Shown here in pieces: positions 35,247 to 36,708 of a stretch of 64,000 nt of DNA. A program made the position numbers and the translations under genes. The notes below the pieces were generated by a model, which saw only the letters and a program-made list of their open reading frames with translations, searched no databases and was not told the DNA's origin. The first letter of the stretch is position 1; the number at the start of each line of letters is the position of its first letter. The DNA lies in NCBI RefSeq assembly GCF_022201045.2, contig NC_068558.1, positions 2,976,001-3,040,000 on the forward strand, in the 5' to 3' direction. Origin of the DNA: Citrus sinensis (taxonomy: Eukaryota > Streptophyta > Magnoliopsida > Sapindales > Rutaceae).

Positions 35247-35872
35247 TGACAAATAGGGTTATTTTTACATACCTCCCCTGAGGTTTCACCTAATATCAGT
35301 TTAATAGAAAGTATCTCCATATTTTTACATCCCTCCCCTAAAGTTAGTATTTCCGTCAGTTGACCGTTAGTGGACTAACAAGAGGACGAAAATACCCTTT
35401 CAAGGTTGACAGTCTTCTTTCAACCAACAAAAACTCAAATCCCCTGTACCACCTCACCAACAAAAACACATCCTTGTTTTCTTAAAATCAAGCTTTCGAT
35501 TTTTGATATTTTTCCCCAAAAATTCAAATAAAAAATCAATTCGAAAAAACTAAACCTCATAACATGTCCAACGTCATCTAACTTTAGCTTGGTATCCATA
35601 ACAACAGCACCAAATGTTGCTATGAAAGCACCGTCGACTAAACTTCAATTTATGTCCGCGGCACAACCAAAATAATTTATATCAATTAAATTAGCCAATT
35701 CTAAAAGCAAATAAACACAATTCGTCCCTCTGCCAACAACAACCTGCACCAGTGAGAAAAGAAGAAAATAAGACCGATTCCGCGAAGAAGAAATAAAAAG
35801 AAAATGAAGGAAGAACAAACAAGGAGGGAAGCAAATGGTCACGATGATGGTGATGGGGTCTTTTCCTAAAGT

Positions 35873-36031
35873 TTATGAAAAGATGAGCTTTCCGGCGAAG
35901 ATCAGCCGCTGGTGGTCCAGTGGAATCCCTTCCTTGTCCTGGATCATAGCCTTGACATTGTCGATCGTGTCGGAGCTCTCCACCCCGAGAGTGATGGTCT
36001 TGCCGGTCAAAGTTTTCACAAAGATCTGCAT
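35873..36031 (-). pseudogene. Captured ubiquitin fragment (residues 1-48) inside the Pack-MULE
   Basis: On the minus strand an ATG at 36031 opens a 52-codon frame starting [15 protein letters not shown] and continuing through [12 protein letters not shown] and IQDKEGIP to RLIFAGK, i.e. ubiquitin residues 1-48 with substitutions at E16 (Gly), K29 (Met), P38 (Leu) and Q40 (His), numbered on ubiquitin by eye. After this it runs into LIFS and stops, so the C-terminal Gly-Gly needed for conjugation is absent. The AACAG directly before the ATG matches the acceptor of the leader intron common in plant polyubiquitin genes. It could not make a working ubiquitin; it is a transposon-captured fragment. 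Confidence 0.92.
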
Positions 36032-36085
36032 CTGTTAATCGTAATCAAAGCAAATAAATTAATTTTATTTAACTAATGTTGGCAG

Positions 36086-36560
36086 CTTTGCTATTAGTGA
36101 CTTAGGGTTTACTGCGGCGGCGGTCGCTAGTGCTGTTGGTGGATTGAGTTCTGCCATGGCTGCTCAGCTTGTCTGGACCCCAGTTGATGTTGTGACTCAG
36201 AGGCTTATGGTGGCTAATGGGGCCGATGCTAGATACGTAAATGGGGTTGATATGTTTAGGAAGATTGTTAGAAATGATGGGGTTAGAGGATTGTATATGG
36301 GTTTCAGGATTTCAATCTTGACAAATGCACCATCAAATGCAGTTTGGTGGGCGTCTTATTCCGTTGCTCAAAGGCTTGTTTGGGGTGGAGTTGGGTGTTT
36401 ATTGCGCAGGAAATATGGTGACCGTGAGGGTGATATGATGATGATTAGGCCGGATTCAAAAACTGTGATGGCGTTTCAGGGAGTGAGTGCAGCCATGGTT
36501 GGTGGTTTATCGACTTTGATTATGATGCCACTTGATACGATTAAAACGAATTTTAAATGA
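36086..36560 (+). pseudogene. Captured mitochondrial-carrier (SLC25A44/At5g15640-like) fragment inside the Pack-MULE
   Basis: An open frame of ~158 codons, following an AG at 36084-36085, encodes the middle and part of the C-terminal third of a mitochondrial substrate carrier. It has the repeat signature TPVDVVTQRLM (PxDxxxxR-type), then GVRGLYMGF and a second signature MMPLDTIKT just before the stop at 36558-36560. The hydrophobic segments ASAVGGLSSAMAAQL and VMAFQGVSAAMVGGLSTLIM are the matching helices. A complete carrier has three such repeats in ~300-330 residues, so the first repeat and the last helix are missing. Position between MULE ends shows it is captured; the frame is intact, so capture may be recent or constrained. 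Confidence 0.88.
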
Positions 36561-36708
36561 ACTTTTACGATTTTACCTTGTGTACTGATGATATACATAA
36601 CTTTATACTAACTGCAGGGGAGGAATGTAAAAACACGGAGATACTTTCTATTAAATTGATATTAGGTAAAACCTCAGGGGAGGTATGTAAAAATAACCCT
36701 GACAAATA

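What the first reader, a model, noticed from the sequence alone, without database searches (positions are those of the whole stretch)
35256..36699. Pack-MULE carrying ubiquitin and mitochondrial-carrier fragments back to back
The element has a perfect 9-bp target duplication (TGACAAATA) and ~85-bp inverted repeats. It has picked up pieces of two unrelated host genes: ubiquitin residues 1-48 on the minus strand and a ~158-codon mitochondrial-carrier piece on the plus strand. The two start only 54 bases apart, in divergent orientation, each right after an intron-acceptor-like AG. This implies capture of genomic, intron-containing DNA and fusion of two donors inside one transposon. Both frames are open to their stops. 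Dual capture with divergent layout could form a bidirectional chimeric unit.
Basis: partly seen in the sequence, partly recalled or inferred. Interest (0 to 1): 0.75.

Follow-up and report, generated by a model that had tools for sequence, protein, structure and literature searches.

The report
Jumping gene carrying two gene scraps
A small plant jumping gene of the Mutator-like kind carries broken pieces of two unrelated host genes, ubiquitin and a mitochondrial carrier; this is a known habit of such elements, and the pieces look like decaying fragments rather than working genes.

Summary
Positions 35256-36699 are a 1444-bp non-autonomous Mutator-like element with a perfect 9-bp target duplication and 95-bp terminal inverted repeats (88 of 95 matching). 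Inside lie ubiquitin residues 1-48 (minus strand) and a 165-codon mitochondrial-carrier piece (plus strand), divergent and close together. It is a two-donor Pack-MULE.

The ubiquitin ATG follows cag, the printed acceptor of plant polyubiquitin 5'-UTR introns, so capture of unspliced DNA is well supported. The carrier's proposed AG lies inside its open frame; nothing shows it to be an acceptor. The 31-54 bp between the pieces are too short for a full shared promoter. Both frames staying open is about as likely as not under neutral decay (0.49). The ubiquitin piece has four amino-acid changes (two further differences are, from recall, plant-type) and lacks residues 49-76.

[quoted passage not shown] A related element at 38595-40293 shares a terminal motif repeated 60 bp inward. 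New member of a known kind; low interest.

The parts
35247..35255 (.). left target-site duplication TGACAAATA
35256..35350 (+). left terminal inverted repeat, 95 bp; holds a 26-bp motif twice, 60 bp apart (23 of 26 alike)
35351..35399 (+). subterminal stretch; similarity to the left end of the second element runs on through it (70% over 145 bp from the left tip)
35400..35872 (.). internal filler of unknown origin; no Pfam match above a curated cut-off in the frames tested
35873..36031 (-). 52-codon frame: ubiquitin residues 1-48 (36031 down to 35888), then four foreign codons and a stop
36032..36062 (-). A+T-rich stretch ending AACAG on the minus strand directly before the ubiquitin ATG; read as the tail of a polyubiquitin 5'-UTR intron. 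The exact junction with the carrier piece is not known
   Evidence: inference
36063..36560 (+). mitochondrial-carrier frame, 165 codons and stop: one carrier repeat plus what reads as the start of the next (PLDTIK; motif recalled)
36605..36699 (-). right terminal inverted repeat, 95 bp; holds a 24-bp motif twice, 60 bp apart
36700..36708 (.). right target-site duplication TGACAAATA

Best explanation
A non-autonomous Mutator-like element (Pack-MULE) in a plant nuclear genome. At some time its interior took up, at DNA level, a piece of a polyubiquitin gene (the end of the 5'-UTR intron plus codons 1-48) and a piece of a carrier gene, joined head to head, most likely by template switching during repair of a gap inside the element (the switch is inferred). 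The element then moved to this site with a 9-bp duplication (shown). Since then the fragments have drifted as neutral passengers (inferred). At most they give occasional chimeric or small RNAs from transcription that starts in a TIR (inferred).
For: TSD and TIRs; Pfam matches of both pieces within the TIRs; no other match to either piece in the window above chance (best other tblastn match E 2.5, phmmer none up to E 10); no accepted family in the flank frames tested; cag/ATG acceptor as printed for plant polyubiquitin genes. Four replacements in about 112 nonsynonymous ubiquitin sites (3.6%, 95% interval 1.0-8.9%) against about 3.9% per arm from TIR divergence (7 of 95): what neutral decay of both would give. 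Both frames stay open with probability about 0.49 at that divergence, substitutions only. Two-parent MULE-derived putative genes are about 5-10% in most Oryza species studied (PMC4858842, passages).
Against: Parent genes are not in hand, so dN/dS could not be computed, and some replacements might predate capture. The age match rests on 4 and 7 changes, assumes that the arms began identical, and counts two further ubiquitin differences (positions 19, 24) as plant-type from recall. At 1% divergence the chance that both frames stay open is 0.825, at 7.3% it is 0.245, so the figure depends on the age taken. No transposase or further copy links the element to a particular MULE clade.
Confidence: 0.88

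Rival explanations
1. Functional bidirectional chimeric gene: the centre drives divergent transcripts encoding a ubiquitin-like peptide and a carrier-like peptide.
For: Divergent layout; both frames open; an acceptor-like cag kept before the ubiquitin ATG.
Against: 31-54 bp between the frames; the ubiquitin promoter and most of its intron cannot fit there; ubiquitin ends at residue 48, without its C-terminal part and Gly-Gly tail; four replacements in a protein known (recalled) to be nearly invariant; the carrier has little more than one repeat of the three that the family has (recalled); open frames are about as likely as not by drift.
Confidence: 0.03
2. Regulatory passenger: transcripts that start in a TIR run through the fragments and give small RNAs that act on the parent genes or silence the element. 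This is compatible with the best explanation.
For: Mutator TIRs are said to hold promoters (PMC3310237, abstract); methylation of gene-bearing MULEs has been linked to small RNA in rice (PMC4858842, abstract and passages). From the right TIR the minus strand would be antisense to the carrier and sense to ubiquitin (inference).
Against: No RNA data here; divergence from the parents unknown.
Confidence: 0.15
3. Capture by fusion: two neighbouring MULEs, each with one fragment, were mobilised as one and lost their inner ends. This is a rival to template switching only, not to the rest.
For: Such fusion is described for other Pack-TYPE elements (PMC8903248, abstract and one section); a related element lies 1.9 kb away.
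Against: No trace of inner TIRs between the two pieces (31-54 bp only); TIR-like matches in the element, at up to 3 mismatches and by BLASTN, lie at its ends only. The doubled motif inside the TIR is also seen in the second element, so it need not stem from this capture.
Confidence: 0.2

Closest known systems
MULE-derived putative genes with two or more parents (Oryza and Leersia, PMC4858842, passages)
   Same: Non-autonomous MULE, gene fragments between TIRs, more than one donor
   Different: There the fragments join in one putative gene; here they are divergent and share no frame, in a plant whose identity is not given
MULEs with tandem TIRs (tomato, Arabidopsis; PMC3310237, abstract and sections 3 part 1, 4.1, 4.3)
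   Same: A repeat inside the terminal region at both ends; one tomato family of this kind is a Pack-MULE
   Different: There external and internal TIR are alike over at least 100 bp; here a motif of 24-26 bp recurs 60 bp inward within a 95-bp TIR
KAONASHI and other ULP-bearing MULEs (PMC2528002 passages, PMC13317346 section)
   Same: MULEs that carry a piece of a ubiquitin-pathway gene
   Different: Those carry a protease domain for ubiquitin-like proteins, not ubiquitin itself

Membership tests
Mutator-like element (MULE) | target-site duplication of about 9 bp (range 8-11 recalled) | tested here: met
   9 of 9 identical
Mutator-like element (MULE) | long terminal inverted repeats | tested here: met
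   95 bp, 88 of 95
Mutator-like element (MULE) | mobilised by a MuDR-type transposase of the same family | not testable with these tools
   no host genome held; no transposase match in the 11 frames of the element that were scanned
Pack-MULE | fragment of a cellular gene between the TIRs | tested here: met
   ubiquitin and Mito_carr
Pack-MULE | parent gene elsewhere in the genome | not testable with these tools
   no other copy in the 64-kb window
Tandem-TIR MULE in the sense of PMC3310237 | external and internal TIR alike over at least 100 bp | tested here: not met
   repeat of 24-26 bp at 60-bp spacing only; definition
Functional ubiquitin | intact 76 residues with Gly-Gly end (recalled) | tested here: not met
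   residues 1-48 only
Functional mitochondrial carrier | three repeats, six transmembrane segments | tested here: not met
   one repeat matched by Pfam and part of a next read by eye

The most novel reading that the evidence does not exclude
The retained polyubiquitin acceptor (cag/ATG) lets transcripts that start in the right TIR, antisense to the carrier, splice onto the ubiquitin fragment, so that one transposon makes both a truncated ubiquitin peptide ending just past Lys48 and antisense RNA against a carrier gene.
Probability: 0.03. Interest if true: 0.55.

Novelty: new member of a known kind. Interest (0 to 1): 0.22.

Why it matters
It is a compact example of two-donor capture in which one donor end carries a recognisable intron tail, which argues for capture from DNA rather than mRNA. 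With the host genome it could date capture against insertion and test whether sister elements hold one fragment or both. By itself it changes no view of Pack-MULEs.

Tried and rejected
Host genome search for parents and copies: none held. TIR 20-mer in viral contigs: 0 matches. Carrier in viral contigs: 5 pattern stretches, none a relative; in genome contigs: 63 pattern stretches, none a relative; so no plant relative was available to test whether conserved carrier sequence runs across the AG at 36084-36085. I recall that plant relatives of the SLC25A44 type have conserved residues across that point; this is a lead, not a test. Solved structures gave only distant carriers. The bacterial-type promoter scan of the element says nothing about a plant. 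Pfam matches below their curated cut-offs were dismissed as chance: Creb_binding E 0.0041, Ac81 E 0.084 and TADA2A-like E 0.04, Sfi1_C E 0.056, Ski_Sno E 0.099.

Papers. Searched and empty: the TIR core as letters (0 papers), At1g72820 with mitochondrial carrier (0 papers). Ubiquitin in Pack-MULEs: 14 papers hold both words; passages were seen in 6 of the 14, the other 8 as listing only. None of the passages reports ubiquitin itself in a Pack-MULE; ULP proteases are reported, and one paper lists 'ubiquitin family protein' among transposed Arabidopsis genes (PMC2869330). Searches (7 of 7 listed; 15 of 1,069 listed, those shown lacking the word Pack-MULE; 4 of 4 listed) gave no such report. The library holds open-licence papers only, so absence is weakly shown. 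PMC3406973 and PMC1852403 were seen as passages and add only background.

Full report
Observation. The 9-bp flanks TGACAAATA (35247-35255, 36700-36708) are identical and directly abut inverted ends of 95 bp that match at 88 positions. The chance of a 9-bp identity at one given pair of sites is about 8e-6. This is an insertion of 1444 bp with the anatomy of a Mutator-like element. Pfam places ubiquitin (E 8e-17, profile 1-48 of 72) on the minus strand and Mito_carr (E 1.7e-23) on the plus strand, both between the TIRs. No other match to either fragment rises above chance in the window (best other tblastn match E 2.5; phmmer none up to E 10). Among plus-strand frames of at least 35 codons, 11 of 13 in the right flank and 10 of 14 in the left flank were scanned against Pfam; none matched a carrier or passed a curated cut-off. 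So nothing suggests that the carrier piece runs on into a host gene outside the element.

The intron argument. On the minus strand the ubiquitin ATG at 36031 is preceded by an A+T-rich stretch ending AACAG (36 of the 44 bases before the ATG are A or T). [quoted passage not shown] A soybean paper reports three of ten ubiquitin promoters without a 5'-UTR intron (PMC3095320, passages), so the intron is usual but not universal. Capture of the end of such an intron is the best reading, hence capture from DNA. For the carrier, the AG at 36084-36085 falls inside the frame, which is open back to 36063. Seven extra open codons are no evidence by themselves, and no plant relative could be found, so the acceptor is neither shown nor excluded; from recall of the plant family I think this is coding sequence.

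Function. Against the solved ubiquitins shown (human type, as I recall it), the piece differs at positions 16, 19, 24, 29, 38 and 40; from recall, Ser19 and Asp24 are the plant state, which leaves E16G, K29M, P38L and Q40H. Four in about 112 nonsynonymous sites is 3.6% (95% interval 1.0-8.9%); the TIR arms differ at 7 of 95, about 3.9% per arm. The two agree with drift since a shared time, but on few changes. At 3.9% both frames stay open in about 0.49 of simulations, at 1% in 0.825 and at 7.3% in 0.245, substitutions only. Open frames are therefore no sign of selection. Neither piece can work as its parent does: ubiquitin lacks residues 49-76, and the carrier has little more than one repeat. 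The 31 to 54 bp between the frames cannot hold a complete promoter with leaders; it seems to be mostly intron tail (inference).

Known or new. A study of 11 genomes of Oryza and Leersia reports that in most Oryza species about 5-10% of MULE-derived putative genes took sequence from at least two parents (PMC4858842, passages). Capture mechanisms in print include gap filling and template switching (PMC8277862, passages, in animals) and re-mobilisation of neighbouring insertions (PMC8903248, one section; PMC13317346, one section). I favour template switching because there is no trace of inner TIRs between the fragments, but this is inference. Of 14 papers in the library that hold both 'Pack-MULE' and 'ubiquitin', passages of 6 were seen and none reports ubiquitin itself in a Pack-MULE; the other 8 were seen as listing only.

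A second element. A related MULE lies at 38595-40293: inverted ends of 101 bp, 87% complementary, 70-75% alike to those of the first element over 95-145 bp. In the first element the motif at each tip recurs 60 bp inward (24-26 bp, 88%); in the second the same holds at the right end (25 bp, 80%), and at the left end only a shorter core recurs, seen in the sequence and the gap-free alignment of the four ends, not in the repeat list. The doubled motif may be a paired transposase site of the family (inference). The flanks of the second element are alike only imperfectly (ATTCATTATAA against ATTATTATAA). No accepted Pfam family was found in 10 of its 14 listed frames.

Verdict. A real, well-formed two-donor Pack-MULE; observation confirmed, interpretation partly supported, ordinary in kind.

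Noticed in passing
window 38595-40293: Second MULE of a related family, 1.9 kb to the right of the first; 101-bp inverted ends 87% complementary, imperfect flank duplication, no accepted Pfam family in 10 of 14 listed frames.
   Followed up: partly
window 35256-35350, 36605-36699, 38595-38695, 40193-40293: A terminal motif (CTCCCCTGAGGTT type) recurs 60 bp inward: 24-26 bp at both ends of the first element and the right end of the second, a shorter core at the left end of the second. Conserved spacing in two diverged elements suggests a paired protein-binding site.
   Followed up: partly
window 35740-35772, minus strand: The internal filler holds another acceptor-like stretch (pyrimidine-rich run ending GGTGCAG), perhaps from a third donor; read by eye.
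   Followed up: no
window 47357-47436 and 62433-62505: tRNA-Leu (also found by Rfam) and a tRNA-Val call by ARAGORN that Rfam did not report at its gathering score.
   Followed up: no
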